DNA from: a virus
Virus record (IMG/VR): IMGVR_UViG_3300027754_000159
Coordinates: 1 to 46,353 of that record
Length of the DNA: 46,353 nt
Strand: one strand, 5' to 3'
The position numbers were made by a program, and so were the translations under genes. The notes beneath the pieces are model-generated. The model was not told where the DNA came from. It saw nothing but the letters and a program-made list of their open reading frames with translations, and did not search any database. Below, in pieces: positions 14,507-45,326 of the stretch; the first letter of the stretch is position 1, and each line of letters begins with the position of its first letter.

Positions 14507-15121
14507 TTATTTAGGTAATACTATGTCTACCTCATATTTAGTGTTTAGACCCCATTTAAAATTATTTATGTCATTTATTATCGGGTTATCTATTTTATTA
14601 TTTTCGGTTATCTTATTACATAGATATATAAACATTTCCTGTGGGAAACTATTTTTCATTATATTAACGTGTTTATGTAACCATTGTACATTACCTTTAA
14701 TGTACCCTTTGGTGTTATCTATTCTATCTAGAGATGCTGTATAATCCGAACCATTCCACCTAGTGGGTAAAGTTATGTCAACACCAGATAGAGCACATTT
14801 ATCTTCTTGTTCTAAAAATAACTTATAAACATATTCTTTAGTTAAATTAAAATCTAAATTACGTCTTTTACTGCGTTTAGATATTTTTGAACTTGTTATG
14901 TTATACCATAAACTACTGCTTATATCACCGTTTTTTTTTAATCTGTTTTTACAACCACACGACACTATTAAAGCACGTCTAAGATGGTCACCACTAATAC
15001 TTTTAATTACACCACACTCACATTCGCATACCCATTTTGTATGTTTATGATCATTAGAAAGGTCTTCATGTAAGACTTTTAACTTACCGAAGACCTTATC
15101 TTTCATTTCCACTTTTTTCAT
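14507..15121 (-). CDS. HNH homing-type endonuclease (204 aa)
   Basis: The N-terminal part has the DNA-binding zinc-type pattern 'W.CECECG' (near residue 30) and 'SCGC' (near 54), as in phage HNH/AP2-like homing enzymes. The C-terminal part is an HNH nuclease: 'CALSGVDI', then 'ASLDRIDNTKGYIKGNVQWL', which carries the D-R-I-D and N-x-x-W residues of the beta-beta-alpha metal fold. It is free-standing, immediately downstream of the ribonucleotide reductase gene, a favoured neighbourhood for phage homing enzymes. Its start overlaps no other gene, and an inverted repeat sits just upstream. It is probably a mobile insertion within the replication operon rather than a replication protein. Confidence 0.88.
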   Translation of the reverse strand: MKKVEMKDKVFGKLKVLHEDLSNDHKHTKWVCECECGVIKSISGDHLRRALIVSCGCKNRLKKNGDISSSLWYNITSSKISKRSKRRNLDFNLTKEYVYKLFLEQEDKCALSGVDITLPTRWNGSDYTASLDRIDNTKGYIKGNVQWLHKHVNIMKNSFPQEMFIYLCNKITENNKIDNPIINDINNFKWGLNTKYEVDIVLPK

Positions 15122-15122
15122 A

Positions 15123-15159
15123 TCACATGTATTTACATATAAATATGTTGTACATGTGA
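15123..15159. repeat. Inverted repeat TCACATGTA...TACATGTGA with nested TATAAATATG
   Basis: Perfect 9-bp arms (15123-15131 and 15151-15159) flank a 19-nt loop. Inside lies the near-palindrome CATATAAATATG, a 9/10 match to the TATAAATATC element. It sits directly before the HNH ATG. It may be an operator, an RNA hairpin that delays nuclease expression, or a trace of the insertion; the sequence cannot decide. Confidence 0.75.
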
Positions 15160-15204
15160 AATGATTTAGTTAATTGTATGTTTTTCTGTGTTTTCTTCTC
15201 TAGT

Positions 15205-28900: not shown

Positions 28901-31900
28901 TATTTTTTTTGCAGTCCATAGTTGACCTGAGGCGTCGTTAGGGTTTACTATCTGTGATAACTGTAATCCTTTAGGATCATCTTCAGTACCAATATCCCCA
29001 TCACCAAAACTTATTTTACCATATGTTGAGCCTGAAGCTAATAACCCATAGTAATTAAAATAAACACATGCGTTTGGTGTTATGGAAGCAACCCCAGAAC
29101 TAATTACATTACCGTCAAGACCACCTGTTACTGGTTGTGATATTGTCCAAGGTAAGTCGCCACCATGCCCTTTTGCCAAAATTTTGGCTGGCTCCGAAAG
29201 AAGTGACCAAGCTTGGTATAACCCAAAACCTATTACATCATCAGCCCAATCTTTAACATATTTACCTTGAGCCGATAAATAATTAGAACTAAATGATGAT
29301 GTTTGTATCTTAGGTGTCCAAGATGTGGAACTACGATATATTTTATTTAAATATATATCTATATCGTTTCTTTCTATATTAGATAAACTTAATATTTTTT
29401 GTGTTATTTGGGTTGTTGGTGAAAACGACCATGCGGTCGATGTATATGCCTCACCTGAATGTGCCTCACGTTTTTTTCCATCATATGAATGCCAACCTGG
29501 TTGTGCTAAAGGATCAAACCCTGTTGGTAAATCACCGGCCGCTAAAGTATTATAAGGTTGTAAGGGTTTATTCCATTTTCCATCTGCTTTAACACCAACA
29601 AACATTTTCCATCTCCAAAGTTGTGCTCCTAAAGCTAATGCCCACATTTTTGGTACTTTAGCAATACCTCCGGCGGTATTGAATGCTTTTAGTGAGTATG
29701 TACTACTAGGTTCATATCCAGTGTCTTCAGAATCGGTTATAGCTAATAAAAATCCTGAGTTTGAACACGCTCTTATAATTAATGGTGTTGGTTTACATGT
29801 ATGTAAGAACAGATAAGCTAAATTTCTATCTTGTATTTGTTTAGTGTTTAGATTTGACCCATAACCTGTTGTTGGTTTTTGTAATTCTCCCGCACCAGTC
29901 TCTATTCTAAATTTATTAACGTTATCCATCCATAATGGTGTTGTAACAAACGCTGTACTAATACCATCTTCTTCTACCTGATCGTAAGGATCGACCCCAG
30001 TCTGATCGCCAAGTGTCATTGCTGGTTCATCAACTAAATACTGTTGTGTAAATATTTTTGACGAATCTCCGTCATTTGTTAAAAGACTAATACCTAAAAC
30101 TCCATCATTACCTTGGTAATCCCAAGCGGTTATTAAACCCATATTTGACACTGGTAACCCATTTAAATCTGTGTCAACACTCCACCAAGAACTAAATTTA
30201 TCCGCTTGAGCATCTTTCATACCTAAAGTTGTAAAAAGTCTACCGTCAACAAAATTTATTGTTTTTTGTGATTCATCCACTATAGCTTTAGGTTGTGGGT
30301 TATCCGTGGTTTTAAATTCAGTACTACCAAATGTAATAGCTTGTGTTGATGTGGTTATTTTCTTACTGAATTTAGTTACAGCTTTACTAAAATCACCATC
30401 CGCAGGTAATATCTCTATTTTTCTTACTTCAGTTTCTGGTATTATTTGTAGTATATTAGCCCACCCCATGTTAAAAGGGTCGGCAGTTATTAAAACTTGT
30501 GTATCCGATGTCTCATCAAATAAAGGTATCCCATCTGTTGGGTTGAATGTTTTGTACAAATCTGTGGATGTAAAACTTTCTTGAAAAGGGCTTACAATTC
30601 CAGGTGTAGTACCTGAAAGTAATAAATTACTGGTAACTAAAGAACTAGCTAAGATATCTTCTTCAATAGAATTTGAGTATTTGGTTTTTAACACATTTAT
30701 TACCTGTGTTTTAAAAGTATCTTTTGTTAACCCAATTAATAAACTTTGTAAAACTCTAACACCACTATCACCTTCTTGAGAATTTATTAAATTCCATGCA
30801 TCTATTTCACCAAAATTACTAGCTAAACTCGTATCATAGCTTGTATTACTTAATGGTGTCCAATTTCCTAGTCCAACATTAGGTATAAATGTTGCGTCAT
30901 TAGTTAACCTAATTGGTGAGAATAAAGTGTGATCACAAGCAATAAACATTCTTTCGCCAACAACCCTATAAATGTCATTTGGGTTTACTAAACCGTAATA
31001 CTTTATTGGGTTGTTATCTCCCCAAACAGGTGCCTCTAATGGTGTTATAGGTACATAATTATCCCAACCAGCTTTTCCCGCTTTATCTTCATTTAATAAA
31101 TCTATATCTCTTTGATATTCTAAAAAAGCTTGTATAAAATCTTCAACAAATCTAACTTCCGGCCAATTAGCAAATTCCGTATTTTTACCTGGGTAAGCCT
31201 CTTTTGTACCCTGTACCTCATTAGCACCTGAATTACCAACACCTAAAAAAGTTTTTTCAATATAAGCCGGCCATGCATATACTTTTTTGGTACCTGTACT
31301 ATTAATAGTTTTGTCATTTACCCAATCTTCAAGTGAATTTGATATGTGGTAATTTTCAGCTTTAACGGCAACTTCTAAAAGTATTTCCATGAAAGCGTCT
31401 GTATTACATAACAATATTGTAAATATATTTCTTATTGTTGGGTTAAAGCCTATTCTATCTACAACAAGTTTATTTATGTCTGCTATTACTTCTTTTCTAT
31501 AATCATCTACTACTTTATCTAATTTAGCTTTTTCATCTTCAATATCTTTTATTATCCACCCCATATCAAGATACTTTTCTGTAGTAGTTGTATCATTTTT
31601 TTTATACCCTAATGAGGCATTATCTAATATGTTATGCCAATTTGTTAAGTTTAATGAATCGTATATTGTATCAAAACCACTTGCAGGATCACCACCAAGT
31701 TGACTTCCTGTGGCTGAAGTTAACATTTTTAAGCCGTCAGCATATACTTTATCCGCATAAACATTTTCTTCTATTTTAAAACTTTTTGTAATTTGAATGT
31801 TTAAAGGAAAAATACCAGGTGTTGGTGTTTTTACAAAATGGTTATAGATTATTGAAGATGTACTTGCTGTTGACGGATCTAATAAATAATTAAGTATTGT

Positions 31901-32974
31901 TTGGTCTTTAAAAACAAGTCTTTCTTTTTTTTCCACACCACTACCGTAAGCCGCACTTGTTTGTATTTCAACACCATACCCATCTTGAGCTAATGAAAAC
32001 ATAAACTTATTAACCACCTCAATGTATTGTGCATAATCATTTTGTAGTTGTATTAAGTTAGTCAACTTACTAAATTCAGGACTATTGGCAATTAAAGGTT
32101 GGGTTTTCTTTTCAAAATCTTGTATTTTATGTAATAAATCTTGTATTGTATAACATCTACCTGGTAGAGCCGGATTATCACACCAAGGTGTTCCAGATTT
32201 TACAGGATCTTCAACTGTTAAACCATTATCTTTATAGAATTTTTTTGTATCTAAATATTTTTGTTTTAGTTTACCTTGTGGGTCATATGAACTATTTAGA
32301 AATTGTGAGGCCCCAACATAACCAACTATTGTATCTGAAAGGAAAGCAAAAGAATATCCAATAAACTCACCCTTACATTCCATATTACCAGTATCTGAAT
32401 TAAATTTTGTATTAAATTTAACTAAGTTTAAATAATATTTAACAGGTTTACCGTAATAACCTTTAACCGTTAATTCAAATATTGGATATGGTAAATTAAA
32501 AAATAACCCATATGGTGAACAAGAACCTTGTTCAAAAAGGGTTGCTCCTCTAACATCAATAAAATCTATAACAACTTTAGGTGCTACCTGACTTTTAATT
32601 TCTATATCTACATTTGTAATACCAAAACCTTCAAAATCTTTATATAACTCAATATTTGGTCCTCCACCTATTTCTGTCCAATCAGTAGTTAAATTAACTT
32701 TTGATTTAAATAAATGGTCCTCATTAATTGTTGTTGTATCTTGTGGTGTTATTAAATCTATTGTATTAGCGATTTTAGTGTTAATACTGAATTTATTATC
32801 AGCTATCTGTGTAATAACACTCTTACTTTTTTGTTTAGCTTGTAAACTTAAAAAAATAGACATATCTTCAAGTGGTACTATTTCACCTAAAGGGTTTGGT
32901 TCTATGATTCTAACGTCATTAGTATCTGAAATAACTTTTGGATTAAAACTACTATCTGAATAAAAACTACTCAT
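25964..32974 (-). CDS. Giant baseplate hub / tail lysin with C-terminal M15 peptidase domain (2336 aa)
   Basis: The ATG at 32974 overlaps the upstream stop as TAATG. The N-terminal region contains 'VDIEIKSQVAPKVVIDFID' and 'FELTVKGYYGKPVKYYL', which look like hub-type beta domains. Residues about 1830-1955 ('TYFDLIGVPMFSGAYLITEVRHNFKP') resemble the gpD/gp27-like hub fold. The C-terminus (about 2010-2270) is an M15-type D-Ala peptidase: 'SNYRTVDSQ', then 'SNHGYGMACD' (near 2131, His and Asp zinc ligands) and 'EPWHYEY' (near 2248, third ligand His). It would cut peptide cross-links while the adjacent lysozyme cuts glycan. The middle ~1500 residues are unassigned. The product is far longer than T4 gp27 and gp5 together. 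Confidence 0.87.
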   Translation of the reverse strand: MSSFYSDSSFNPKVISDTNDVRIIEPNPLGEIVPLEDMSIFLSLQAKQKSKSVITQIADNKFSINTKIANTIDLITPQDTTTINEDHLFKSKVNLTTDWTEIGGGPNIELYKDFEGFGITNVDIEIKSQVAPKVVIDFIDVRGATLFEQGSCSPYGLFFNLPYPIFELTVKGYYGKPVKYYLNLVKFNTKFNSDTGNMECKGEFIGYSFAFLSDTIVGYVGASQFLNSSYDPQGKLKQKYLDTKKFYKDNGLTVEDPVKSGTPWCDNPALPGRCYTIQDLLHKIQDFEKKTQPLIANSPEFSKLTNLIQLQNDYAQYIEVVNKFMFSLAQDGYGVEIQTSAAYGSGVEKKERLVFKDQTILNYLLDPSTASTSSIIYNHFVKTPTPGIFPLNIQITKSFKIEENVYADKVYADGLKMLTSATGSQLGGDPASGFDTIYDSLNLTNWHNILDNASLGYKKNDTTTTEKYLDMGWIIKDIEDEKAKLDKVVDDYRKEVIADINKLVVDRIGFNPTIRNIFTILLCNTDAFMEILLEVAVKAENYHISNSLEDWVNDKTINSTGTKKVYAWPAYIEKTFLGVGNSGANEVQGTKEAYPGKNTEFANWPEVRFVEDFIQAFLEYQRDIDLLNEDKAGKAGWDNYVPITPLEAPVWGDNNPIKYYGLVNPNDIYRVVGERMFIACDHTLFSPIRLTNDATFIPNVGLGNWTPLSNTSYDTSLASNFGEIDAWNLINSQEGDSGVRVLQSLLIGLTKDTFKTQVINVLKTKYSNSIEEDILASSLVTSNLLLSGTTPGIVSPFQESFTSTDLYKTFNPTDGIPLFDETSDTQVLITADPFNMGWANILQIIPETEVRKIEILPADGDFSKAVTKFSKKITTSTQAITFGSTEFKTTDNPQPKAIVDESQKTINFVDGRLFTTLGMKDAQADKFSSWWSVDTDLNGLPVSNMGLITAWDYQGNDGVLGISLLTNDGDSSKIFTQQYLVDEPAMTLGDQTGVDPYDQVEEDGISTAFVTTPLWMDNVNKFRIETGAGELQKPTTGYGSNLNTKQIQDRNLAYLFLHTCKPTPLIIRACSNSGFLLAITDSEDTGYEPSSTYSLKAFNTAGGIAKVPKMWALALGAQLWRWKMFVGVKADGKWNKPLQPYNTLAAGDLPTGFDPLAQPGWHSYDGKKREAHSGEAYTSTAWSFSPTTQITQKILSLSNIERNDIDIYLNKIYRSSTSWTPKIQTSSFSSNYLSAQGKYVKDWADDVIGFGLYQAWSLLSEPAKILAKGHGGDLPWTISQPVTGGLDGNVISSGVASITPNACVYFNYYGLLASGSTYGKISFGDGDIGTEDDPKGLQLSQIVNPNDASGQLWTAKKISDNYNWSQLWIAPHHIPYVHPEGFAGGKGEACSYVQVFTNTMDYLDYQTIMPEDRIGFGYKEMCNYGDTVTDVFKNLHSDPNVENLIDPTSMLRQGRFIHRDRVSDGNLGMVMQHLPDEVKDIFIKNFEEWVDSDFGGSSNNILKEIDPINFDNTSTGSLIGGSYSWSREISKTAVNGTTNNSVALALKPNLTETKKLVSEKYWILNSTPKIWYGIDSSDTITTNKFNSKFVISNKIFDEYLNSFFDTLQTNKTKKIDEIQKKNIEDNLGSSLKDDDVKLSFYRTFKSLTDKWISASDKNKLFFNLVESAGKNCKSGNGDGEKPTLASHFQYVNRVMGDIGNIAVLNVTKLLELKDNIKISLYQYISDLLAENEYLFFPLPGYINFTPQGTDKKDLEDMFRPTLSLDNVSCGPLFLSMYVGGNSKQLQIKSNANCPDDKKALQNLEDDGFSISNPLQTAQPAETKDPKLVGSKGYTAFKVVYGLDTQNHFKNIQLDQSEFSETAESLLAIDKLGKQGGTDQTSKGQNLNSIYLTRSYSCQVESLGNMMIQPMTYFDLIGVPMFSGAYLITEVRHNFKPNNATTTFKGTRQPRATIPIVVDAAIAMDMSFKDLKTNKVGQSIATVKTDGGTNTSQTQPEASNTNGNVSSSNVADDTFIVNYKTGVKQPWLDKSNGGLLPINAGNTVLVNLGSDYGSYTYFFHEAADAWKAMAAQMKTDTGVLISKTGSNYRTVDSQITLRKNNCGGNLTDRKASCSPQTAAVQELNGKIYSSSNHGYGMACDTTPFKGGATYYSVKLPSDKGVYSNSNVCKQEAKSLGFDDCTSLAVAKAKENSASYLSSGKLNLQKVKDFYANLTGNPTSDELRTMNDLALLWMQENAPSFGWQPLSSEPWHYEYTLQPDGGHPNFKSSYTGKIKSGDQYNVNKSNGYPDLTTLNNVKLVTASNATNTNNTGTVAKASQGKVKNVTLQNKLQSLGKIS

Positions 32975-33300
32975 TAACTATCAATTTTATATAAAATATC
33001 GTAATTATCTACTGATTGTTGGTAAATTTGAAGTGCGTTATTTAATGGAAATGGTATCCTTATTGTAGAACCTTCTGGGATATCAAACTCCAAACCACCG
33101 TATTGTGGATTTGCCTGCATTATTAACCAACCATAGTATGGTGTACCATAATACGTTTGTGAAACAATGTCAAGTCTTGTCCTACTTTTATACTGAATAA
33201 GAATGTCAGAACCTAAATTAGGTATTTTAATAAATGGTACTGCCTTAACTTGGTTATTGATTCTAAACCTATCGTATCTATCGTAATATTGTTTTGCCAT
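32974..33300 (-). CDS. 53: LysM-like baseplate protein, gp53/tail-X type (108 aa)
   Basis: The core 'SRTRLDIVSQTYYGTPYYGWLI' (residues about 38-60, quoted in recognisable halves) followed by 'NPQYGGLEFDIPEGSTIRIP' has the LysM-type layout of P2 gpX and T4-type gp53: L-D-x-x-x-x-x-x-Y-G, W-x-I, N-P, then P-x-G-x-x-I-x-x-P. gp53 locks wedges around the hub. It overlaps both neighbours as TAATG, directly before the hub gene, which fits. Shorter than T4 gp53 (196 aa). Confidence 0.75.
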   Translation of the reverse strand: MAKQYYDRYDRFRINNQVKAVPFIKIPNLGSDILIQYKSRTRLDIVSQTYYGTPYYGWLIMQANPQYGGLEFDIPEGSTIRIPFPLNNALQIYQQSVDNYDILYKIDS

Positions 33301-36300
33301 TATATTTTTATTGTATTAGTAGCGTTATAAGTTTTCTTTTGTCCGTTAGGGAAAATTGCTGCATCTTTTTCAGTTACACTAATTATATAAGTACAATTAA
33401 TATTAGGTGACACATTACCTGTTACAGCCTCAAATAATGTACAATCTTTACCAGGGCAATTATCAAATGATAGAATTATTTTGTCATGTAATTCAGTGTT
33501 TGTTACAACATCTTGGTCAAAATTACCACCATAAGCTTTACTAAGTATAATTATCGGTCCGGTATTACCAACAATGTCAACTTCTACACCTAGTAAAGTC
33601 CATTTTGTATTATTAACTTGTATTTGTATACCTGAATCAGTTTTAGTTATTGTTGCAATATCATCTGATGGGTTATCAACACCAGCTGTTGTCGCCGGTT
33701 TAGTATCACCTTGTGATGTTGTTTGGCTATTATTTAATTGGTAACTTGCATCACTATCTATTTCATCGGTTTCAGCCTTTGTCATGCCAGCATCTGTATT
33801 AGTGGTATCTGGTGATGTTATTGGTAATGAATTTTTTAATTCGTTACCGGCTATTACCGAGGCATTAGTGACATTCGTAACATCTTCTGGACTTTTAAAC
33901 GCCCCAAAAGTTCCACTATAAACAAATTTTTCTTTCTCACCCAATATAGCGTTTAATGTACGAGCCGGATTATAAACACTTGTATTAGCGAAAAAGTTAT
34001 ATGATACAGCGTTTTGTAATTGACTTATTGGCCCTCCCAATGAACTTCCACCAATAAATTTAAACCCAATACTTACTTTTGCTATCATTGGTTGTACACC
34101 AATACCTTCTGGATTTAAATCCCAAACTAAAGGGTCAAAAGTAAAATTACACGAGTCTATAACTATTTTTGTATGGTAAAAATCACCAATTCTTAAAACA
34201 CAGATTGGGGGTCTACCAAATACCATATTTTGTGGTAAATTTAAATCACCTAATTGTGGCCCTTGTCTTGTACATTGTTGTAAAAAAGTTAACCTTGAAT
34301 TAAGCCCTTCTGGTGTCATCGCGTGAAAAGCGGGGTGAAAGTTTTTAATTCTATCTGTTAACGAATCATATAAAAAAGGATCTGTCTTTTTCATATCCAC
34401 AAAATAATCCGATTCAGTTATATAGTAATTAACTGCCTCATCTATAGCTTTAGTTTTTTCTTGTTCAGCTAAGGCTTTTAATTGTTCAGCATTTTGAGCG
34501 TTTTGAATATTTTTTAAAATGTTAGCTTGTAAAACAGTATTTGGTTGCAAAGTTATTTGTGCATATCTAGCTAATTTAGCCACTTTAGAATTAGCTTGTC
34601 CAGGTAATAAATTTTTATCACAAGGATCACCATCACAACAATCATCTTTACCTGTAATAGCATTTTTACAACTACTTTCAGGTGGACAAGGAATTGGGTT
34701 CTCTAATGTTGGTATACCTTCTGTTACCCACCTATTAAGGTCGTCACTTAATGTACTTTCTTTTGGATAGTATTCATTTGTACCAGCTAATTTAAGTTTA
34801 TCCGGATAAGATTCTTCGTTTTCTATTATTTTAGTAATTAGGTATTTTTTTGTATTGTCAGCTCTATCTTTAGCTAATTGTACATTAAAAGTATCTGTTG
34901 GTTGAGCGGCAGATGTAAAACCTTGTACTTTTATCGTAAAATTTTTACCCTCTCCTGTTGCTAAAAATTCCGCCAACATATCTAATTGTAGTCCACCAGG
35001 GTTGTTAAAAACTTTATAATTTAAACCACCCGGTTGTACTTGTATATAACTATTATATGTACCACCAGAAGAATTTATACATTGTAATTGACCTGCGTAA
35101 GGACCGGCGATACACATAACAGTATTTTCATATTCTGTAGATACTGCTCTACCTACACCGTTTGGTGATGAATAATCTATACCCTCTCTGATTCCACTAC
35201 TTCTACAGTTTTCAAAATAAATTTTAAGGTCAGTAACCAAACCTTCTGGTATTGTTGGTGGTTTTGGTTCTACTGTTGGTGTTACTGTTTGTGTTGTATC
35301 GGATGTTTTTTGTACTCTTTCACTATCTGGTTGATACCCTGAAAATAAAATTTTAATAGATTCAGCGTCACACCCAGCAAAAAATGAGTCGTATCCATCG
35401 CCATTTAATGTGTCACCAAATTTATCCCTTAAAGTATTTAAAACTTCAGGATGATCCACAACAACGGTAAAATCTAATGAACCACTTCTTTCGGTGTGGT
35501 TATAAGTATAAATCGGTTCTCCTCTACCAATAAAACTTGTAGTATCCCAAGATACTGATGTGCTATCAGTGAAATTTAAATCATAAGGTGGAAACCACAT
35601 AATTCTACCACCATTTGGTCCTCTTTCTGATGGAGATAATTCATTAAAATGTGGTGAATCTTTCCAAGCCAAGTTTTCAATTGAAAACATGTATGGTACC
35701 AACAACCCACGAAAACTACTTTTAGTTGGGTTTGTGGCATCTACAACATTTTTTATTTTTGCAGCGTTATAAGCATCATTATCTTCTTTTGTCCAAGCAA
35801 TTTTTGGCATACCAACATTGGCATTTTCACCCTGTGTACGCCAATTCATGGTCATTGTACTGTTTTCTGTTTGCCCTTTCCACCAATTATTATCACTTCT
35901 AACTAACTCATTAAAATATTTATAAGGTCTTCTTACTGACCAAGAACGACAATATGAACCAAATTCTTCAACACCGTTACCCCATTTAGTTTCTAATGCT
36001 GTATTACCGTTTGATACTAAATTATGTAGTGTGTTTTTTTCACCACCATGTATACTTATAGCGTAATTCGCATCACTGTTTACTAAACCAATATATCTAC
36101 TACCACTCTTACGATCATTTGTTGTCTTATTAACTAAATCTTGTGTATATTTTAAAATACCTTTTTTTGGTTTATACGGTGAGTTTTGTCCCCAATACAT
36201 TCCACTACGTTCAGGACTTGGGTAATTTTCTGGTATCTTCCCTATATCTTCAGCCGACATTTCTGTGCCTATAGGATTTTCGGCTTCAAACTGAACAAGA

Positions 36301-37904
36301 TTATTAGTATGGTGATAAGGATGGTTTGCTGAATTACTTAATGTGTCAAAACCACTTCCACTGTTATTTAAAATAGAATCAATACTGGTATCACTATCTA
36401 CGGTACTGTCTGGTTTATTAGGTGCGTTACTTGCTGATTTATTTAATAAACTTTTTACCTTATTATTAATAGAATCTATAATTGATGTGGATCTACCGTT
36501 AGTATTTGTTTTTTGTGGTTCTGTATATGTTAAATAATTTTGTGTTGATGGAGCTTGTCCCGCACCTAATTTTTCTTTTAAAAACTTTTTAATTCCTGTT
36601 GCTGGAGTGTTATCAGCTGATTCTAATTTAGGTCCGTATTTATTTATATAAAGTGCGTTATACAATAAAGATTTTTGTCCACTACCTGTATGGTCTAATA
36701 TATCATTTGTAATGTCTACATCATTTTTATCCACACCGTAACCACCAAAAGAACCTTGTGGTATAATACTTACAGGTAAATTAAATCCAGCAAGGTCGGC
36801 AGCAAATTCTAAGACTTTACCAATACCACTCTTTGGTACTGTTATCTTATAATTTTGTTGTATTAAATTTCCACCAGATAAAAGACTAAAAGGACTAACA
36901 TTCAACGCTCCAATTGTGTTGTCTGTAAAATTTAATTTAATTCTATTTTTTAATTCGACACCTCTTCTTTTTCTAGCTATAGTATCTAAATCAGAAATAT
37001 TTTGTCCGTCAGGTTTATAATTGATACCTGAACCTAATTCACTAAAAGGTACAACACCAACGCCTAAAGTTCTACTTAATAATTGGTCTCTAAAATCACT
37101 TCCTGATTGTGTATTATATTCTATAAATCCTGTACTACCATAAACAACTTCATCACCACCATAAGAATAGTTTATAATTTCAGAAGGTCCGTATTTATTT
37201 GAACTTCTAGCTAATAAACCAATATCTCTTACTTCGTGTGTTGTAGTTTGGTATCCACCATCACTAACCCAAGTTTCTATATTACCAGCAAAACCTATTT
37301 TTAATGTTGATGGTACCCCATAGGAAGTACCTAAAGAATCATAATTACTATTATAAATTGTTGTCCATTCAAATGGGTACCAAGTATTAAGTTCTAATGG
37401 GGTTGGGTTTTTATCAAGGTTGTCTTTTCTTGGTTGTGTAAAATTATTTATTGGCCCTGGTATTAAAGCGGCATCTTCAGCTGAAGGTAAATCATTTACT
37501 GAAGTTGTTAAATTCATTTGTGACGCTGCATCAGTACCCAATCCAGCTAATATTGGTGTTGTAACACCCAATACGTTAGACACTTCAGGGTTAATATTTG
37601 GTAAGTTACTTGTTAAGTTAACTTGTCTAGGGTTTGTTAAATTATTATATAAAGAAGGATTTTGAGCAACATCTTGTAAATTAGGAACGTCAACAACATT
37701 TGGTAATGACATTGAAACATCGTATTCTGTTGCTCTATCAACCCAAGGGTTACCACCTAAAACTCCACTTATCACAGAGTTAGCTACTGGTAAATTATGT
37801 GTAAATAGATAAGTACGAAAATTAGTATCCGTTATTGGACCTAATATACCACTATCAAAGTTATCTATGTTATAATTAAATGGGTTTATTTGGTTTGATG
37901 GCAT
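33300..37904 (-). CDS. Very large tail/baseplate structural protein with OmpA-like segment (1534 aa)
   Basis: Heads a leftward tail unit behind TATAAATATC copy 3. Recognisable parts: 'RGEPIYTYNHTERSG' then 'VVVDHPEVL' near 793-820, a motif I associate with large T4-like tail proteins; an OmpA/MotB-like segment near 985-1025 ('FTIKVQGFTSAA', 'LAKDRADNTKKYL'), the kind that binds peptidoglycan; a Cys-rich loop near 1071-1098 ('DDCCDGDPCD'); and 'GVQPMIAKVSIGFKFIGG' near 1266 followed by 'ANTSVYNPARTLNAILGE'. No signal peptide. I infer a tail-tube-tip or baseplate component that may grip the cell wall during penetration; the T4 equivalent is uncertain. Confidence 0.85.
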   Translation of the reverse strand: MPSNQINPFNYNIDNFDSGILGPITDTNFRTYLFTHNLPVANSVISGVLGGNPWVDRATEYDVSMSLPNVVDVPNLQDVAQNPSLYNNLTNPRQVNLTSNLPNINPEVSNVLGVTTPILAGLGTDAASQMNLTTSVNDLPSAEDAALIPGPINNFTQPRKDNLDKNPTPLELNTWYPFEWTTIYNSNYDSLGTSYGVPSTLKIGFAGNIETWVSDGGYQTTTHEVRDIGLLARSSNKYGPSEIINYSYGGDEVVYGSTGFIEYNTQSGSDFRDQLLSRTLGVGVVPFSELGSGINYKPDGQNISDLDTIARKRRGVELKNRIKLNFTDNTIGALNVSPFSLLSGGNLIQQNYKITVPKSGIGKVLEFAADLAGFNLPVSIIPQGSFGGYGVDKNDVDITNDILDHTGSGQKSLLYNALYINKYGPKLESADNTPATGIKKFLKEKLGAGQAPSTQNYLTYTEPQKTNTNGRSTSIIDSINNKVKSLLNKSASNAPNKPDSTVDSDTSIDSILNNSGSGFDTLSNSANHPYHHTNNLVQFEAENPIGTEMSAEDIGKIPENYPSPERSGMYWGQNSPYKPKKGILKYTQDLVNKTTNDRKSGSRYIGLVNSDANYAISIHGGEKNTLHNLVSNGNTALETKWGNGVEEFGSYCRSWSVRRPYKYFNELVRSDNNWWKGQTENSTMTMNWRTQGENANVGMPKIAWTKEDNDAYNAAKIKNVVDATNPTKSSFRGLLVPYMFSIENLAWKDSPHFNELSPSERGPNGGRIMWFPPYDLNFTDSTSVSWDTTSFIGRGEPIYTYNHTERSGSLDFTVVVDHPEVLNTLRDKFGDTLNGDGYDSFFAGCDAESIKILFSGYQPDSERVQKTSDTTQTVTPTVEPKPPTIPEGLVTDLKIYFENCRSSGIREGIDYSSPNGVGRAVSTEYENTVMCIAGPYAGQLQCINSSGGTYNSYIQVQPGGLNYKVFNNPGGLQLDMLAEFLATGEGKNFTIKVQGFTSAAQPTDTFNVQLAKDRADNTKKYLITKIIENEESYPDKLKLAGTNEYYPKESTLSDDLNRWVTEGIPTLENPIPCPPESSCKNAITGKDDCCDGDPCDKNLLPGQANSKVAKLARYAQITLQPNTVLQANILKNIQNAQNAEQLKALAEQEKTKAIDEAVNYYITESDYFVDMKKTDPFLYDSLTDRIKNFHPAFHAMTPEGLNSRLTFLQQCTRQGPQLGDLNLPQNMVFGRPPICVLRIGDFYHTKIVIDSCNFTFDPLVWDLNPEGIGVQPMIAKVSIGFKFIGGSSLGGPISQLQNAVSYNFFANTSVYNPARTLNAILGEKEKFVYSGTFGAFKSPEDVTNVTNASVIAGNELKNSLPITSPDTTNTDAGMTKAETDEIDSDASYQLNNSQTTSQGDTKPATTAGVDNPSDDIATITKTDSGIQIQVNNTKWTLLGVEVDIVGNTGPIIILSKAYGGNFDQDVVTNTELHDKIILSFDNCPGKDCTLFEAVTGNVSPNINCTYIISVTEKDAAIFPNGQKKTYNATNTIKI

Positions 37905-38119: not shown

Positions 38120-40882
38120 TTATCTTCCTTTACCGCCATTTTTATCTTTTTCAGTGGACTCAGCGATTAACTGTTTTAACTTACTAACAAAAATAGGGTC
38201 AGATACCCAATCAGTATCGGATTTACCACCTGATTTACCAGCAATTTGAATTGAACCGTCTATATGTAACGATTCGTCAAATTTTATTGTTGTTGTTGAT
38301 CCCAATAAAGCCATCCATACAGATAAATCTTTTAAAGCTTGAAGTTTATTTTCGTCTACTGAATTTATAGCGTTAATAGTTTTTGTGATACCTTCTGCAC
38401 CACCTGTCGACGCTAAGGCTGACGCCGTTTGGGTTAACATCGAGGTAACACCACCCAATATTAATAAACCAGGTAAAGCAAGTAATGATGAAAATGCTAG
38501 AGCTATAAGTGAGGCTGATAAAAGACCTATTGATATTGCTAAAAACCCCATACCTAAAGAAGCTTCTATTAATTGTGGACCAGAGATAACTGTAAATAAT
38601 TGTGTCAAGGAACCTAATATTGTTGATACTCCTTCAGCAACCAATTTAAAAGCGTAACCTAACGCCATAGCGGCAACCGATAACCCAAGTAATAAAAGTA
38701 CACCTATTTCACCAATACCTGTTTCACCTAAAGCACCTAAAGCAAAAACTGCCAGTGTTAATACACCAAGACCCGCTGCCATAACAAGTATACTATCAAG
38801 ACCAACATCTTTCATCATTTGTAGACCATAAGCAAGTGGAATCATAGATGCACCCAATATTGCGATAGCTACAGCCCCTTCAATCATATCTTTTTCGACT
38901 TTACTTAAAGCCCAAGCTGCCGTACCTAAAATGGCTAATCCGGCCGCGGTCATTAATATAACCTCACCTTTATTACTAACCTTATCCATTTCTTGTAAAG
39001 ATTTAGCAAAAACAAACAAAGCCGCTGATAAAATTAAAATAGCTACAGCCCCTTTAATCATATCAGTAGCGTTAATACCTTTGGTTACATCACCAGCTCC
39101 ACCCCCTTTTGTACTTGGAGTTGAGGGTGATTCACTTTGTGTACTTAAACCACTAGATTCTTTTTTAGATAACCATTTCATTTGTTTTTTTGAAAAGTCC
39201 CCACCTTTACCTGTGGCAGCATTAAAACCTTTACCCATTTCATACCCTTGTTTAAAATTTTTACCAGGACCAAAAAATCCTATCATATTTTTAACAAAAT
39301 TAATGGCTTGTATAGCTTTCATTACTAAAAATAAAGTGCCTACACCTATCGCGAACCATTTAATTATGGGTAATAACATTTTTGTTGTATCTAAAAATTT
39401 TGTAAAACCAGAAGTTAAATTGTCAGCGGCTGGCTTTAACCAATTTTGTATTGATTGTAAAAGAGGCCAAAAAGCCATTGTGAGTTGGTCTATGACAGCA
39501 GCCCATTCTTGTCTCATACTAATAGCGTCTTTTTGGGTTTTATCATCTAAATCCCTTTTTTTAGCTAAATTTATGGCCTCATCCTTACTTAATTCAGAAA
39601 GTTTTTTAGTTAAGGGTAACCCTGTATCTGGATTTACACCTATCTGTATTGTACCGTCAGCATTAGCCATACCTGTTATCATGTCAACAGTTTTAGGGTC
39701 TAACCCTTTACCTTTTAACATACCTTCAAAAGCATTAATTTTGGCTGTCTGTTTTGCTGTTTTAGCTAGCTCAGCATAATCCATACCTAAAGCCGCTGCA
39801 GCCTCTTTTAACCTATCCAATTCATTCGCATTAACTTTCCATTCCCCAGTCGCCTTATCAAAAGTCGCTGATGCTGAAGCAGCCTTTGTTAAACTCTTAG
39901 CCAATTCTTCAGGTGAATTACGTGCTTTATACATTAATTGAAATGGGTCACCCAAAGCTGCTAAACTACCACCTAATACTTGTAATTGAGCTGCGGCCTC
40001 AATAGCACCTTCAGGTCTAAAAACTTTATCAGCCACAGAAGCGACTGAATTCATATCTATTTTATATTTTTCAGAATATGCTGCCATAGCCATCATACCC
40101 TTAACACCTTTATTAAAATTAAGTTTGTTCATCAAACCCAAGTTTGATTGAAACGATTTTAAAACTTTTGAAGAGTTCGCTCCAATAGCCTCAGCCTCGG
40201 AAGACATTTCAGCAATTAAAGCTACGGACTTTTCAGCCCCAAAACCAAAAGCTTCCATTTCACCTGACATAGCAGCAACACCCTCAACACCTAAACCAGT
40301 TTTAGCACCAATCATAGACATAGTTTTAAGGACCTCACCACTTAAAATAACAGACCTACCAACCTCATCCGAGTAAGCTCCTTGAGCCTCAGCTAAATCT
40401 TTTGCTTCAAAACCCCATTCAGCAGCAACATTTCTTGCGGCTATCATGTTACTTTGCATCATATTCATTTTTGAACCAGACAGACCCATGTTAACACCTG
40501 TCTTACGAACCGCCTCATCAAAATCAAACCATTTAGTTAAAATATTACCTAATACCCCTAAGAAATTTTTATCTAAAATGTTGGCGGCCGATTTAATTAA
40601 ACTACCTTGTTTAGCTAATTGTTTATTAGTTTCTATTAAAAGTTGTTGTTCTTTTTTAAGTGAGGCAAGTTTTTTTTTGCCTTCTTCCGTTGTATCTTCA
40701 GCTAATTCAAGTATTTGTGCTTGAATTATTTTTATATCCCCCCAATTTTTATTTATTCTATTTTGATACTCAGCATAACCTTTAAAAGAAGTTACTTGTT
40801 CTTTAAAAGTTTCGTTAATATCTTGTTGCATTTGAAGGTATTTAGCCTCATCTGCAAGATTTCTTTTAAAATTATCTTCCAT
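38120..40882 (-). CDS. Tail tape measure protein (920 aa)
   Basis: Sets tail length and is thought to reach into the cell envelope on ejection. The N-terminal ~100 residues are helical ('KKLASLKKEQQLLIETNKQLAKQG'), residues about 130-420 are Ala/Gly/Met-rich helices typical of tape measures, and residues about 505-815 hold roughly seven hydrophobic segments ('IKWFAIGVGTLFLVM', 'GAVAILILSAALFVFA', 'LLLLGLSVAAMALGYAF' and others). The C-terminus is charged. The ATG at 40882 overlaps the upstream stop as TAATG. With about 1.5 Angstrom per residue, the length would give a tail of about 140 nm (inference from the known rule). Confidence 0.88.
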   Translation of the reverse strand: MEDNFKRNLADEAKYLQMQQDINETFKEQVTSFKGYAEYQNRINKNWGDIKIIQAQILELAEDTTEEGKKKLASLKKEQQLLIETNKQLAKQGSLIKSAANILDKNFLGVLGNILTKWFDFDEAVRKTGVNMGLSGSKMNMMQSNMIAARNVAAEWGFEAKDLAEAQGAYSDEVGRSVILSGEVLKTMSMIGAKTGLGVEGVAAMSGEMEAFGFGAEKSVALIAEMSSEAEAIGANSSKVLKSFQSNLGLMNKLNFNKGVKGMMAMAAYSEKYKIDMNSVASVADKVFRPEGAIEAAAQLQVLGGSLAALGDPFQLMYKARNSPEELAKSLTKAASASATFDKATGEWKVNANELDRLKEAAAALGMDYAELAKTAKQTAKINAFEGMLKGKGLDPKTVDMITGMANADGTIQIGVNPDTGLPLTKKLSELSKDEAINLAKKRDLDDKTQKDAISMRQEWAAVIDQLTMAFWPLLQSIQNWLKPAADNLTSGFTKFLDTTKMLLPIIKWFAIGVGTLFLVMKAIQAINFVKNMIGFFGPGKNFKQGYEMGKGFNAATGKGGDFSKKQMKWLSKKESSGLSTQSESPSTPSTKGGGAGDVTKGINATDMIKGAVAILILSAALFVFAKSLQEMDKVSNKGEVILMTAAGLAILGTAAWALSKVEKDMIEGAVAIAILGASMIPLAYGLQMMKDVGLDSILVMAAGLGVLTLAVFALGALGETGIGEIGVLLLLGLSVAAMALGYAFKLVAEGVSTILGSLTQLFTVISGPQLIEASLGMGFLAISIGLLSASLIALAFSSLLALPGLLILGGVTSMLTQTASALASTGGAEGITKTINAINSVDENKLQALKDLSVWMALLGSTTTIKFDESLHIDGSIQIAGKSGGKSDTDWVSDPIFVSKLKQLIAESTEKDKNGGKGR

Positions 40883-42684
40883 TATTTACGTGGTTGTAAC
40901 ATTAACTTACCTGTAAAAGGTGTTGTACCTTTATATGCGTAAGCATTTTTATTTATTTTAACCTCTATCGGACCTTTAAACCAATTTGGATTTGGTTTTA
41001 TTGGTGTCACTACTAAAGCTCCATCATTATCACCACTACCTTGTGGTTTTATAATGATAGAACCAGGTAAAGTCATACTTTGTTTAATAATCATTCTATC
41101 ACTTTTGAAATCTGAATTAACAAAAGTTTTAATTATTGGTTTTATAACATCATCGTCACCTTCTTTAATATCATATATTTTACCCGAAACAGGAACCTCT
41201 TTTTTAATTTCTTTAGTGAATAAACTACCAGTACCACCACCACTGCCACCTTTACTGAACTTACTAACATCTTCACCTCTTTTAGCCTTAGCTTTAGGAC
41301 CTAATATTATAGATTTTGAATATATTTTTGTTTCTAAATCACTAGCAGCACCAAAGAAAATTTTACCTTTTTCTAAAGAAGTAGATTCACCTTCTTCTTC
41401 CTCTTCAAAAATTAATTTAACATTATTAGCTATGTTGTTAATAAAAGATTCCATTGTCGACATACTAGCTTTAGGTGTATTATTTACATTAATATTTTTA
41501 CCACTTTCAATACCTTTTTGTTTACCGCCTTTAGTCATTTCAGGTAGTTTACTAAAACTTCTTAAAAAATTATTAAAACTACCGATAAGTTTTTTCCAAA
41601 GAAGTTTTCTTTCTTGTTCGTTTGAGGTATTAGATTTACCTTTTGACGCGATTATAAATAATTGTTTATAAAAATCTTTTATAACATTATAAGTTTCAGA
41701 ATTTTTACCACTTTTTGCTACTTTAGCAAATAATGAAAATAATTCCGTCATAAAGTTTTGTAATTCAAGTTTAACTTTTAAATACTTTCTTTGTCTTCCA
41801 GACATTGAAGTTGGTGCCTCTAACAAACCGTTGGTCTTTAAATCTTTTAAAGTCACCAAAAGAGGTTTTTTATTTATTTTAATAGATTTTGTTGTATTGA
41901 TTATCGCGTCTAAAAATATTTTTTGAAAATCTTCGTCAGTTTGGTATTGTTGAATTACTGAGAAAAAGTTAGCCTTTTCTTTAAGGTTTGTAAGTTTTTG
42001 GTTAGCCTCTTTAATATCTTTTCCATTATAATAATTGCCCTTACCATTTCCACCGTTTTCTTTTTTTTCACCATCCTCGTCTTTACCTTCTTCTTCTTCA
42101 CCATCTTCTTCCCCATTTTCACTTTCACTAACACCTGTATTTAAAAGTTTTATAAAATCGTCAAAAATACCTATATTATAAAACTTACCTTTACCACCAT
42201 CATCACCTGTTGCAATAGCCTGAATACCTTTTTTAGTTCCAGGTAAATTTGTTACAAGTTCATCAGCGTCAAAATGTATTTTAAAAATACTACCACCCGG
42301 TATTTTAACACTAATTTCACCTTTACCATTTTTTACATTAAAATTAGTATCGTCTTCCGTTTTAAGTTCTAAAACTAAACCGTTATCAACAGAATTAACA
42401 CGAGCCAAAGTATCAAACTGAATTGGTTTTGGTATTGTCAATTCTTGAGCCTTATCTTTTACCTGTAATAAAAAATTATATTTAAAAGGTTCTACGGACA
42501 ATTGTTCAATAGTTGTAACACCTCTCAAGGCCGCTAAATCTGGTCTAGCACCCATACCAGCCATTCTTTCTTTCACCCTATCAACAGCTAGGTCAGCTGT
42601 TGCGGCCTGATGAGCTCTATCATCACCAGTCACAGATTCATCTGCTTCATATAAAGTTTGTCGTATAATACCTTTAATGTTCAT
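40882..42684 (-). CDS. Uncharacterised tail-region protein (600 aa)
   Basis: First gene of the tape-measure unit, directly behind TATAAATATC copy 4. Its N-terminus 'MNIKGIIRQTLYEADES' resembles the short 'IRKILKE' leaders at 45354-46323. A beta-rich region follows (about 65-175), then a long acidic low-complexity tract (about 185-225, 'EEDGEEEEGKDEDGEKKENG'), a helical region (about 235-420), a second acidic patch ('FEEEEEGE') and a basic, Gly-rich C-terminus. No family is recognised. In T4, genes 27 and 28 sit between gp51 and the tape measure, so a hub-assembly role is possible but not shown by sequence. Confidence 0.8.
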   Translation of the reverse strand: MNIKGIIRQTLYEADESVTGDDRAHQAATADLAVDRVKERMAGMGARPDLAALRGVTTIEQLSVEPFKYNFLLQVKDKAQELTIPKPIQFDTLARVNSVDNGLVLELKTEDDTNFNVKNGKGEISVKIPGGSIFKIHFDADELVTNLPGTKKGIQAIATGDDGGKGKFYNIGIFDDFIKLLNTGVSESENGEEDGEEEEGKDEDGEKKENGGNGKGNYYNGKDIKEANQKLTNLKEKANFFSVIQQYQTDEDFQKIFLDAIINTTKSIKINKKPLLVTLKDLKTNGLLEAPTSMSGRQRKYLKVKLELQNFMTELFSLFAKVAKSGKNSETYNVIKDFYKQLFIIASKGKSNTSNEQERKLLWKKLIGSFNNFLRSFSKLPEMTKGGKQKGIESGKNINVNNTPKASMSTMESFINNIANNVKLIFEEEEEGESTSLEKGKIFFGAASDLETKIYSKSIILGPKAKAKRGEDVSKFSKGGSGGGTGSLFTKEIKKEVPVSGKIYDIKEGDDDVIKPIIKTFVNSDFKSDRMIIKQSMTLPGSIIIKPQGSGDNDGALVVTPIKPNPNWFKGPIEVKINKNAYAYKGTTPFTGKLMLQPRK

Positions 42685-42742: not shown

Positions 42743-42937
42743 TTATCTACTTTTACCTTTTGATTTAGCTCTATTATATTCTGCTTTCTGTTCCTCCAAT
42801 TCTTTTTGCCATAAATCCAAATAAATTCTTCTTTCCCATATTGGCATTGACATCACAGATTCATAAGAATATCTCATATGTTTTACCATGTAATATATTT
42901 CTTTTCTAAGATCTAAATTATAACTTGACGTTAGGCC
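42743..42937 (-). CDS. Overlapping downstream frame, probable frameshift extension or gp51-like protein (64 aa after the slip)
   Basis: An open frame reaches back to a TTG at 43000, deep inside the gp26-like gene, and has no ATG until 42889, which would drop 'GLTSSYNLDLRKEIYY'. That stretch and the following 'MRYSYESVMSMPIWERRIYL' read as one continuous domain, like the small gp51-type hub-assembly proteins encoded after gene 26 in T4. The frame joins the gp26-like frame at a run of seven T. I therefore annotate it from 42937 as the extension made by a +1 (317-aa) or -2 (318-aa) slip. An independent 48-aa protein from ATG 42889, preceded by A-rich sequence, is the alternative. Confidence 0.6.
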   Translation of the reverse strand, partial: GLTSSYNLDLRKEIYYMVKHMRYSYESVMSMPIWERRIYLDLWQKELEEQKAEYNRAKSKGKSR

Positions 42938-43697
42938 AAAAAAAGTTGAGTCCGAGGGTAATTGAAGTGAGAAAGCTACCTGTCGGCCCCTCCACCTCAA
43001 CCGACATGTCTATACCTGGCTCTATTATATCTGAATATTCTCTAAATTTAAGAGAATCAAAAGCTGGCATTATATTAATATATTGTTGAATATAATTAGG
43101 ATCTCTATTACCTTCAATTTCTTTGATTTGTGCTTGTAGCCTGTATGTTAATGTATTTGAGATTTGGGATTTTGTTGCTTTCTCATATTTTTCTGACCTA
43201 GAAAGAATCGACCTTTCGTCACCAACAGTTAAAAGTTTAAATTTGATTTTCTTTTTACTTCTTGGTAATAAAAATTCAAATTCACCGTTTTCATCAGGTT
43301 CAACACCTTTTGGTAATTCTTTTGTTTTAAGGGCGTTTAAATCAATTTCGTGTTCAAATTCTACACCACTATTTGGATCTGTTAACTTAACTGGATAAAT
43401 TTCTCCATAACCTGTGGCTCTTAACCAAATCATAATTGCGTTTCTATCACCAATTAATAATTGGTCCATAGGAACTGGAGATTCTTTAATTTTTCTCTCC
43501 ATAAGAACGTCAATAACTTTACCACTCTTAATTAAGTTTGGTGATGTTAAGATATTTTCATCCATAGCGGTCATGTATTCTACTTTTACGTTACCTTGTT
43601 GACCTGGATATAATAACCCACCAGAAGGCAAAGGAATAACATCGAATGGTGCTTGTAATTGTACTTCTTGTGTTTGTTGTTTGTTTACATTTGACAT
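42918..43697 (-). CDS. 26: Baseplate hub / tail assembly protein, T4 gp26-like (259 aa)
   Basis: N-terminal pattern 'IPLPSGGLLYPG' followed by 'VEYMTAMDENIL', 'VIDVLMERKI' and 'MDQLLIGDRNAIMIWLRATGYG' is that of the gp26-like family encoded near the tape measure of T4-like phages. The zinc-type C-x-x-C present in many relatives is missing; in its place is 'DPNSGVEFEHEIDL'. The C-terminal part is helical then beta. Slightly longer than T4 gp26 (208 aa). It opens a short leftward unit that ends in the terminator at 42715-42739. Its last codons contain the AAC TTT TTT TGG slip site. Confidence 0.82.
   Translation of the reverse strand: MSNVNKQQTQEVQLQAPFDVIPLPSGGLLYPGQQGNVKVEYMTAMDENILTSPNLIKSGKVIDVLMERKIKESPVPMDQLLIGDRNAIMIWLRATGYGEIYPVKLTDPNSGVEFEHEIDLNALKTKELPKGVEPDENGEFEFLLPRSKKKIKFKLLTVGDERSILSRSEKYEKATKSQISNTLTYRLQAQIKEIEGNRDPNYIQQYINIMPAFDSLKFREYSDIIEPGIDMSVEVEGPTGSFLTSITLGLNFFWPNVKL
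42938..42944 (-). other. Candidate slippery site (seven T on coding strand)
   Basis: In the gp26-like frame the site reads AAC TTT TTT TGG. A +1 or -2 slip re-pairs tRNA-Phe perfectly and enters the frame that runs to 42743; a -1 slip hits TAA after two codons. Confidence 0.55.
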
Positions 43698-44321: not shown

Positions 44322-45326
44322 ATGAAAATGACACAAGATAAACTAAATAGATTAACAGAAGTTCTTTCAGTACCGACACATTCACAAAATGAGGCTTTAA
44401 TGATTGAGTATTTACAAAAAGTTTTAACAGAAAAAGGGTATGAACATTATACAGATACTCACGGTAATATCTATGTAACAAAAGGTTTTACCAGAAATTT
44501 CCCTTGTTTCATCGCACATACTGATACTGTACATAAAGTTAACAAAAACTTAACTGTATTACAGGAAGAGATAGATGGTGAAGTAACTTTAAGAGGTATT
44601 GATAAGGAATCTAAAAGACCTTTAGGTATTGGTGGTGATGATAAGTGTGGTATTTATTTAGCTCTTGAAATGTTAGATACATTACCTAATGTAAAGATAG
44701 CTTTCTTTGTATCTGAAGAAATTGGGTGTAAAGGTAGTATGTACGCAGACCCAAAATTCTTTGAAAACGTTGGTTATGTAATTCAATATGATTCTCCAGG
44801 TGGTGACTCTATGAGTTTAACATTAATGGGGCGTTATTTATTTAACCAAAAATCAGAATTTGCTGACAAAGTAACAGATTTAATTACCGAACACGGTATC
44901 ACTGATTGGGCTTACCATCCTTATACAGATGTTTGGCAAATCATGGAAAAATTTAACATAGCTTGTTTAAACTTAGCGGCTGGTTATTACAAATATCACA
45001 CTGACAACGAATATGTTATAGTTGACGATGTTCAAAATGGTTATAACTTAGGTTTGAAACTTGTTGAAATTCTTGGTGAGAACAGTTATAAAAACTATAA
45101 AGAAGATAAAAAACACACTTATTCAACATACTGGGGTGGAGAAACAAAGGTATACAATCCAGCCAAATCTAATAACTTATTAGTAGAGGGTGCTAAAGAT
45201 GAAACTGACGGTGATGATATCTTTAATAACGGTGAATATGTTTGTACTGACCGTGGTCGTAAAGATTATGGGTATGGACCTTATTACAGTAGAAGTGAAC
45301 AATGGGATGAAGATTATGATTGGTAA
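44322..45326 (+). CDS. M20/M42-type zinc metallopeptidase (334 aa)
   Basis: Predicted two-zinc aminopeptidase or carboxypeptidase. Ligands and catalytic residues of the clan appear in order: H66-x-D68 in 'IAHTDTVH', D106 in 'GGDDKCG', E132-E133 in 'SEEIGCKG', D157 in 'QYDSPGG' and H226 in 'YKYHTDNEY'. The opening 'LNRLTEVLSVPTHSQNE' is typical of peptidase T/M20 proteins. There is no signal peptide, so it would work in the cytoplasm. The C-terminal ~70 residues are acidic and Tyr-rich ('DYGYGPYYSRSEQWDEDYDW'). The gene ends at a terminator. Such a peptidase is not part of phage assembly; it may recycle host peptides or disarm a host factor. Confidence 0.88.
   Translation: MKMTQDKLNRLTEVLSVPTHSQNEALMIEYLQKVLTEKGYEHYTDTHGNIYVTKGFTRNFPCFIAHTDTVHKVNKNLTVLQEEIDGEVTLRGIDKESKRPLGIGGDDKCGIYLALEMLDTLPNVKIAFFVSEEIGCKGSMYADPKFFENVGYVIQYDSPGGDSMSLTLMGRYLFNQKSEFADKVTDLITEHGITDWAYHPYTDVWQIMEKFNIACLNLAAGYYKYHTDNEYVIVDDVQNGYNLGLKLVEILGENSYKNYKEDKKHTYSTYWGGETKVYNPAKSNNLLVEGAKDETDGDDIFNNGEYVCTDRGRKDYGYGPYYSRSEQWDEDYDW

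What the first reader, a model, noticed from the sequence alone, without database searches (positions are those of the whole stretch)
42743..43697. Probable programmed frameshift joining gp26-like and gp51-like frames
Seen: the downstream frame overlaps the gp26-like gene, lacks an ATG that would keep its conserved-looking start, and meets the upstream frame at AAC TTT TTT TGG. A +1 or -2 slip yields a fused 317- or 318-aa product; a -1 slip ends at once. Known: many tailed phages make tail assembly chaperones by frameshifting just upstream of the tape measure gene, usually -1 but sometimes +1 or -2. In T4 genes 26 and 51 are adjacent separate genes. If real, this would tie the T4 26/51 pair to the G/GT chaperone logic.
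Basis: partly seen in the sequence, partly recalled or inferred. Interest (0 to 1): 0.72.

Follow-up and report, generated by a model that had tools for sequence, protein, structure and literature searches.

The report
Frameshifted phage tail-assembly chaperone gene
A phage gene for a tail-building helper protein is predicted to be read in two ways, because some ribosomes skip one base at a run of T's and add a second domain; relatives of phage T4 usually do this by stepping back one base, whereas this lineage steps forward, and T4 itself uses two separate genes.

Summary
Confirmed and extended. On the minus strand, a 259-aa gp26-like ORF (PF12322) overlaps a +1-frame ORF encoding a small helical gp51-like domain. 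The two meet at AAC TTT TTT TGG. The +1 arrangement is conserved in 106 of 107 scored loci: metagenomic phages, Flavobacterium phage immuto, Microcystis phage Mel-JY01, SP-15, LIS04, GXN1 and a 484-kb phage. Slip-site variants (TTT CTT TGG, TTT CTA TGG, TTT TTC TGG, CTT CTT TGG, TTC TTT CGT) break the homopolymer but nearly all keep a UUU-Y step. That fits +1 re-pairing of P-site tRNA-Phe and argues against -2 shifting and transcriptional slippage. The second frame has no conserved start codon, yet evolves as protein-coding sequence. Homologous genes in jumbo phages, cyanophages and Aeh1-like phages instead use a canonical -1 T_TTT_TTC heptamer. T4 has two paralogues: gp26 (short form) and gp51 (fused form). 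So this is the T4-family tail assembly chaperone (TAC-N/TAC-NC). The T4 26/51 logic is already published (Vladimirov 2022, known here through citing papers). I found no report of the +1 version or the change of direction. No protein-level evidence exists; efficiency and the exact slip codon are inferred.

The parts
42918..43697 (-). Zero-frame ORF: short chaperone form (TAC-N, gp26-like), 259 aa
   Evidence: PF12322 E=2.6e-10, phrog_150 E=3.3e-11; AF2 pLDDT 88
42936..42947 (-). Predicted +1 slip site AAC TTT TTT TGG (T7 run 42938-42944)
   Evidence: Sequence; position and UUU-Y pattern conserved in relatives
42743..42937 (-). +1-frame extension after the slip: 64-residue helical TAC-C (gp51-like) domain plus stop
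   Evidence: phrog_634 E=1.1e-7 and phrog_150 C-terminus; hhalign with the -1 clade / T4 gp51 domain E=3.8e-9; three helices predicted
42918..43009 (-). Stretch in which both frames are open (frame overlap)
   Evidence: Stop-to-stop extent of the second frame
40882..42684 (-). Next gene downstream, 600 aa, function unknown
   Evidence: No significant family match
38120..40882 (-). 920-aa ORF, candidate tape measure protein (by position and hydrophobic helices only)
   Evidence: Inference; no family match; tape measure gene follows the chaperone in immuto, LIS04 and SP-15

Best explanation
[quoted passage not shown] Most ribosomes read to the zero-frame stop and make the 259-aa short form (TAC-N, gp26-like). 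A minority, with peptidyl-tRNA-Phe in the P site at AAC-UUU-UUU-UGG, re-pair one base forward on UUU and resume decoding at GGC in the +1 frame, giving a 317-aa long form that carries the helical TAC-C domain. By analogy with lambda gpG/gpGT, the short form would coat the tape measure protein and the extra domain of the long form would recruit tube subunits. Shown here: the frame offset, its conservation, coding selection on the second frame, codon constraint at the slip site, and homology to T4 gp26 and gp51. Inferred: the frameshift event itself, the exact slip codon, its efficiency, and the chaperone role.
For: 106/107 scored loci have the domain in the +1 frame. Slip-site variants TTT TTT TGG, TTT CTT TGG, TTT CTA TGG, TTT TTC TGG, TTT CTA TTC, TTC TTT CGT, TTT TTT CAC all contain a UUU-Y step that lets tRNA-Phe re-pair at +1; one locus has CTT CTT TGG, like the CUU-U slip of RF2. 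The Phe slip codon is TTT in 61/61 distinct junctions against 667/849 TTT elsewhere in these ORFs. No start codon is conserved in position; 22 of 83 loci have no ATG/GTG/TTG before the domain. Past the zero-frame stop, substitutions fall 174/109/514 on second-frame codon positions 1/2/3. T4 gp51 is the same fusion in one frame. The homologous junction uses canonical -1 T_TTT_TTC in 84 of 86 cyanophage/Aeh1-type loci and in six jumbo phages. C-terminal domains of the +1 and -1 clades are homologous, hhalign E=3.8e-9.
Against: No peptide, ribosome-profiling or reporter evidence. The A-site codon is a sense codon, not a stop or an obviously hungry codon, so what drives +1 slippage is unclear. The SD-like signal enriched upstream in part of the clade (GGG glycine codon at -3: 29/54 vs 90/875 elsewhere) is not present in the same form in the window (GGA there). 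No downstream RNA structure stood out. Loci are related, so the counts are not independent.
Confidence: 0.9

Rival explanations
1. The two frames make separate proteins: the second ORF is translated from its own internal start, perhaps coupled to termination of the first.
For: Many loci have some ATG/GTG/TTG in the second frame (61 of 83 at or before the slip, mostly TTG). Depositors annotated short separate ORFs from internal starts, e.g. in immuto and phiAS5. Cygsa01 has an overlapping TAATG.
Against: No start is conserved in type or place and 22 of 83 loci have none before the domain. Separate initiation gives no reason for the invariant TTT slip codon or the constant frame offset. T4 gp51 and phrog_150 carry the joined form. 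In -1 relatives the frame opens only at the heptamer.
Confidence: 0.05
2. A -2 frameshift at the T-run, as in phage Mu, makes a 318-aa fusion.
For: Reaches the same frame; T7 in the window permits re-pairing.
Against: Sites such as GAA CTT CTT TGG, ACC TTT CTA TGG and GAA TTC TTT CGT do not allow -2 re-pairing but do allow +1.
Confidence: 0.03
3. RNA polymerase slips on the T7 run and a mixed mRNA population encodes both proteins.
For: T7 homopolymer in the window and in many relatives.
Against: TTT CTT TGG (28 of 83 non-redundant loci), TTT CTA TGG and TTC TTT CGT lack a homopolymer longer than three or four yet keep the offset.
Confidence: 0.03
4. Sequencing error or decayed gene.
For: A single-base indel would produce such a picture in one sequence.
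Against: The same offset occurs in isolates and many independent metagenomes, with coding selection on both frames.
Confidence: 0.01

Closest known systems
T4-like tail assembly chaperones (Vladimirov, Gautam & Davidson 2022; T4 gp26 = TAC-N, gp51 = TAC-NC; PF12322, phrog_150)
   Same: Homologous N-terminal protein and C-terminal domain; a short and a long product.
   Different: T4 uses two divergent paralogous genes and no frameshift. Here there is one gene with a predicted +1 frameshift.
-1 frameshifted gp26 homologues of cyanophages (Kyanoviridae), Aeh1-like phages and jumbo phages (121Q, RaK2, PA5oct)
   Same: Same gene family, same junction position after an F-F motif, same C-terminal domain.
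   Different: They use a canonical T_TTT_TTC heptamer with the domain in the -1 frame; here it is in +1 at UUU-Y sites.
lambda gpG/gpGT chaperone frameshift
   Same: Short and extended forms from one gene by a frameshift near its 3' end.
   Different: -1 shift (PMC5009743); sequence homology to lambda gpG/gpT was not tested.
RF2 (prfB) +1 frameshift, present in 72% of Bacteroidia examined (PMC8710568)
   Same: P-site slip one base forward on a U-rich codon; SD-like sequence upstream in part of the clade.
   Different: RF2 slips before a stop codon with a short SD spacing; here the A-site codon is sense and the SD-like signal is not universal.
Haloarchaeal virus HSTV-2 tail-gene frameshift, described as very likely +1 (PMC5009743)
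   Same: +1 frameshift in a tail-assembly context.
   Different: Different virus group; homology not tested.

Membership tests
T4-like tail assembly chaperone (PF12322 / TAC-N) | PF12322 domain above the curated cut-off | tested here: met
   40.8 bits against cut-off 24.5, E=2.6e-10
T4-like tail assembly chaperone (PF12322 / TAC-N) | Short and long forms share the N-terminal part; the long form carries a conserved C-terminal domain | tested here: met
   At sequence level: second frame matches phrog_634 and the phrog_150 C-terminus and the T4 gp51-type domain by hhalign, E=3.8e-9. The long form is predicted, not detected.
T4-like tail assembly chaperone (PF12322 / TAC-N) | Gene lies just upstream of the tape measure gene | tested here: inconclusive
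   True in immuto, LIS04 and SP-15; in the window a 600-aa ORF intervenes and the 920-aa candidate has no family match
T4-like tail assembly chaperone (PF12322 / TAC-N) | Fold like known tail assembly chaperones | tested here: inconclusive
   HK97 chaperone 2OB9 is the top VIA-align row but Z is only 4.8; Foldseek rank 2, not significant
T4-like tail assembly chaperone (PF12322 / TAC-N) | Binds the tape measure protein, needed for tail assembly, absent from virions | not testable with these tools
   Needs genetics and biochemistry
Canonical -1 programmed frameshift (X XXY YYZ) | Extension encoded in the -1 frame behind a heptamer | tested here: not met
   -1 frame stops at once (TTG GCC TAA); the domain is in +1
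+1 programmed ribosomal frameshift | P-site tRNA can re-pair one base downstream | tested here: met
   UUU to UUU here; UUU-Y in nearly all relatives, CUU to UUU in L020
+1 programmed ribosomal frameshift | Slow A-site codon or stop, plus a stimulator such as an SD-like sequence | tested here: inconclusive
   A-site codon is UGG or another sense codon; SD-like GGG enriched in part of the clade, not in the window
+1 programmed ribosomal frameshift | Fused protein detected | not testable with these tools
   No proteomics data available here

The most novel reading that the evidence does not exclude
The recoding direction of one homologous chaperone gene changed in evolution: -1 at T_TTT_TTC in the T4 superfamily and jumbo phages, +1 at UUU-Y in this broad lineage (Flavobacterium, cyanobacterial and Firmicutes phages), and no recoding after gene duplication in T4. 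A one-base length change near the F-F codon run would suffice, with essentially the same fused protein kept throughout.
Probability: 0.6. Interest if true: 0.62.

Novelty: new variant of a known kind. Interest (0 to 1): 0.52.

Why it matters
Chaperone frameshifting was described as conserved in long-tailed phages except T4 (PMC5009743). This gene family shows three solutions to one need, two chaperone forms from shared sequence: a -1 shift, a +1 shift, and duplicated genes. That makes it a natural system for asking how frameshift direction evolves and how the ratio of the two products is set. In practice, the second half of this gene is missed or annotated as a separate small protein in public genomes, including SP-15, immuto, cyanophages and many metagenomic phages.

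Tried and rejected
blastn against GenBank phages found nothing. A mixed alignment was too diverse for a profile scan. Downstream RNA structure: 50-nt folding energy no different from background. DUF6760 (PF20546) is a weak match to the second frame (E=2e-4, below cut-off); whether contractile injection systems share the arrangement is untested, since 287 genomes of one available phylum held no match and the controls did not ring. A single origin of the +1 mode is not shown: support 81/51, and 57/17 after trimming and dropping long branches. T4 gene 26 keeps no fossil heptamer: it reads GAG TTC TTT GAG. Solved structures by sequence: no significant match. The Vladimirov 2022 paper could not be opened, so whether it mentions any +1 case is unknown.

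Full report
What was checked. The minus-strand ORF 43697..42918 (259 aa) ends ...ITLGLNFFWPNVKL*. A second frame, +1 relative to it, is open across its 3' end and stops at 42745..42743. The junction reads AAC TTT TTT TGG CCT AAC GTC AAG TTA TAA, with the T7 run at 42944..42938. A +1 slip yields 317 aa, -2 yields 318 aa, and -1 stops after TTG GCC.

Identity. The first ORF matches PF12322 'T4 bacteriophage base plate protein' (E=2.6e-10) and phrog_150. The second frame matches phrog_634 'baseplate hub assembly catalyst' (E=1e-7) and, tellingly, the C-terminal end of phrog_150 (columns 224-281, E=5e-4). So the reference family itself holds joined forms.

Conservation of the +1 arrangement. IMG/VR relatives at 35-97% identity, 80 of at least 599 relatives of the Flavobacterium phage immuto protein and GenBank phages were scored with HMMs for both parts. 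Of 107 loci with both parts (window included), 106 have the second domain in the +1 frame and one (Pseudomonas phage PA5oct) in -1. The +1 set includes Flavobacterium phage immuto, Microcystis phage Mel-JY01, Bacillus phage SP-15, Listeria phage LIS04, Streptococcus phage GXN1 and a 484-kb metagenomic phage. Rhodothermus phage RM378 shows TCC TTT TTT TGG and an open +1 frame by eye, but its domain was not recognised by the HMM.

The slip site. Across 83 non-redundant loci the three codons are TTT TTT TGG (42), TTT CTT TGG (28), TTT TTC TGG (5), TTT CTA TGG (4), and one each of CTT CTT TGG, TTT TTC TAT, TTT CTA TTC and TTT CTT TAC. More distant phages have TTC TTT CGT, TTT TTT AGT and TTT TTT CAC. 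The common denominator is UUU followed by U or C, on which tRNA-Phe can re-pair one base forward; CTT CTT TGG (L020) has the CUU-U step known from RF2. Sites without a homopolymer argue against transcriptional slippage, and -2 re-pairing fails at several of them. The Phe slip codon is TTT in 61/61 distinct junctions, although TTC makes up 21% of Phe codons elsewhere in these ORFs. Because the loci are related this is not a clean probability; clustering at 60% protein identity still leaves 12 groups with several different slip sequences (the pattern in that script caught an upstream F-L-R in some groups, so its codon list is only indicative).

The second frame is translated, and not from a start of its own. 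Past the zero-frame stop, 40 disjoint pairs of relatives differ 174/109/514 times at codon positions 1/2/3 of the second frame, a coding signature like that of the first ORF (301/133/661). No start codon is conserved: 22 of 83 loci have no ATG, GTG or TTG before the domain, and in the rest the candidates vary in place and kind.

Possible stimulators. The glycine codon three before the slip is GGG in 29/54 junctions against 90/875 elsewhere, and upstream pairing to the anti-Shine-Dalgarno is stronger than background (mean -4.0 vs -1.6). This resembles the SD-like element of RF2, whose +1 frameshift is common in Bacteroidia (PMC8710568). The window has GGA there, so the element is not universal. 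No downstream structure stood out.

Homologues that shift the other way. Of 86 loci of cyanophage and Aeh1/phiAS5 type, all have the same domain in the -1 frame; 84 have it directly after T_TTT_TTC and one after T_TTT_TTT, with the zero-frame stop one or two codons later, and in several the -1 frame opens only at the heptamer. Six jumbo phages (121Q, RaK2, Atu_ph07, SCTP-2, Vibrio 2.275.O, PA5oct) have T_TTT_TTC and RAS14 has T_TTT_TTT. Pseudomonas phage Cygsa01 lacks the heptamer and may use an overlapping stop/start TAATG. Profile comparison shows homology of the C-terminal domains of the +1 and -1 clades (Prob 96, E=3.8e-9) and of the N-terminal parts (E=6e-9).

T4 itself. Genes 26 and 51 are adjacent but divergent. 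Both proteins match PF12322 and phrog_150 and each other (BLASTP 2e-6). gp26 covers columns 14-235 of phrog_150, ending where the frameshift genes end in frame zero; gp51 covers 13-280, the fused length. On a tree of the N-terminal part, gp26 and gp51 fall together next to the -1 phages Aeh1 and phiAS5; -1 rows lie on both sides and +1 rows on one side of a branch, with the minimum of three changes. Support for a single +1 group is weak (81/51, then 57/17), so the number of direction changes is not settled.

Structure. AF2 gives a confident model of the first ORF (pLDDT 88). The best of 592 aligned PDB chains is the HK97 tail assembly chaperone 2OB9 (Z 4.8), which is suggestive but below the level at which a match is trusted. 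The second domain is predicted as three helices (pLDDT 87).

What is known. [quoted passage not shown] Vladimirov, Gautam and Davidson (Virology 2022) identified T4-like chaperone genes; PMC10885494 cites it for one short and one fused gene instead of a frameshift, and PMC12846349 cites it for poly-T -1 signals in T4-like phages. Thus the family, the function and the T4 duplication are known. The +1 version, its breadth and the change of direction were not found in the literature searches made here in an open-access library, which is not proof of absence.

Verdict. A conserved, predicted +1 programmed frameshift in a T4-family tail assembly chaperone gene: a new variant of a known kind.

Noticed in passing
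window 33300-37904 (-): A 1534-aa protein in the baseplate region carries a near-cut-off OmpA-family (PF00691) match at residues 973-1029 (E=4.8e-5), unexpected for a baseplate-region protein.
   Followed up: no
window 44322-45326 (+): A 334-aa protein with weak, below-cut-off peptidase M20/M42 matches (E about 1e-4), divergently oriented from the chaperone gene; a possible phage-encoded aminopeptidase.
   Followed up: no
window 14507-17070 (-): A B12-dependent ribonucleotide reductase (15205-17070; PF02867, PF21995) lies among baseplate genes, next to a 204-aa ORF (14507-15121) that looks by eye like an HNH-type endonuclease but has no Pfam match.
   Followed up: no
window 25964-32974 (-): A 2336-aa protein without any Pfam match whose C-terminus contains HGYGMACD and WHYEY stretches resembling an M15-type peptidase (by eye only).
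   Followed up: no
L120 (Pseudomonas phage Cygsa01), around 3300: A relative with the domain in the -1 frame but without the T_TTT_TTC heptamer, with stop and ATG overlapping as TAATG; it may have replaced frameshifting by coupled reinitiation.
   Followed up: partly
window 42773-42913 (-): The second-frame domain weakly matches DUF6760 (PF20546, below cut-off); whether contractile injection systems use the same arrangement could not be tested.
   Followed up: partly
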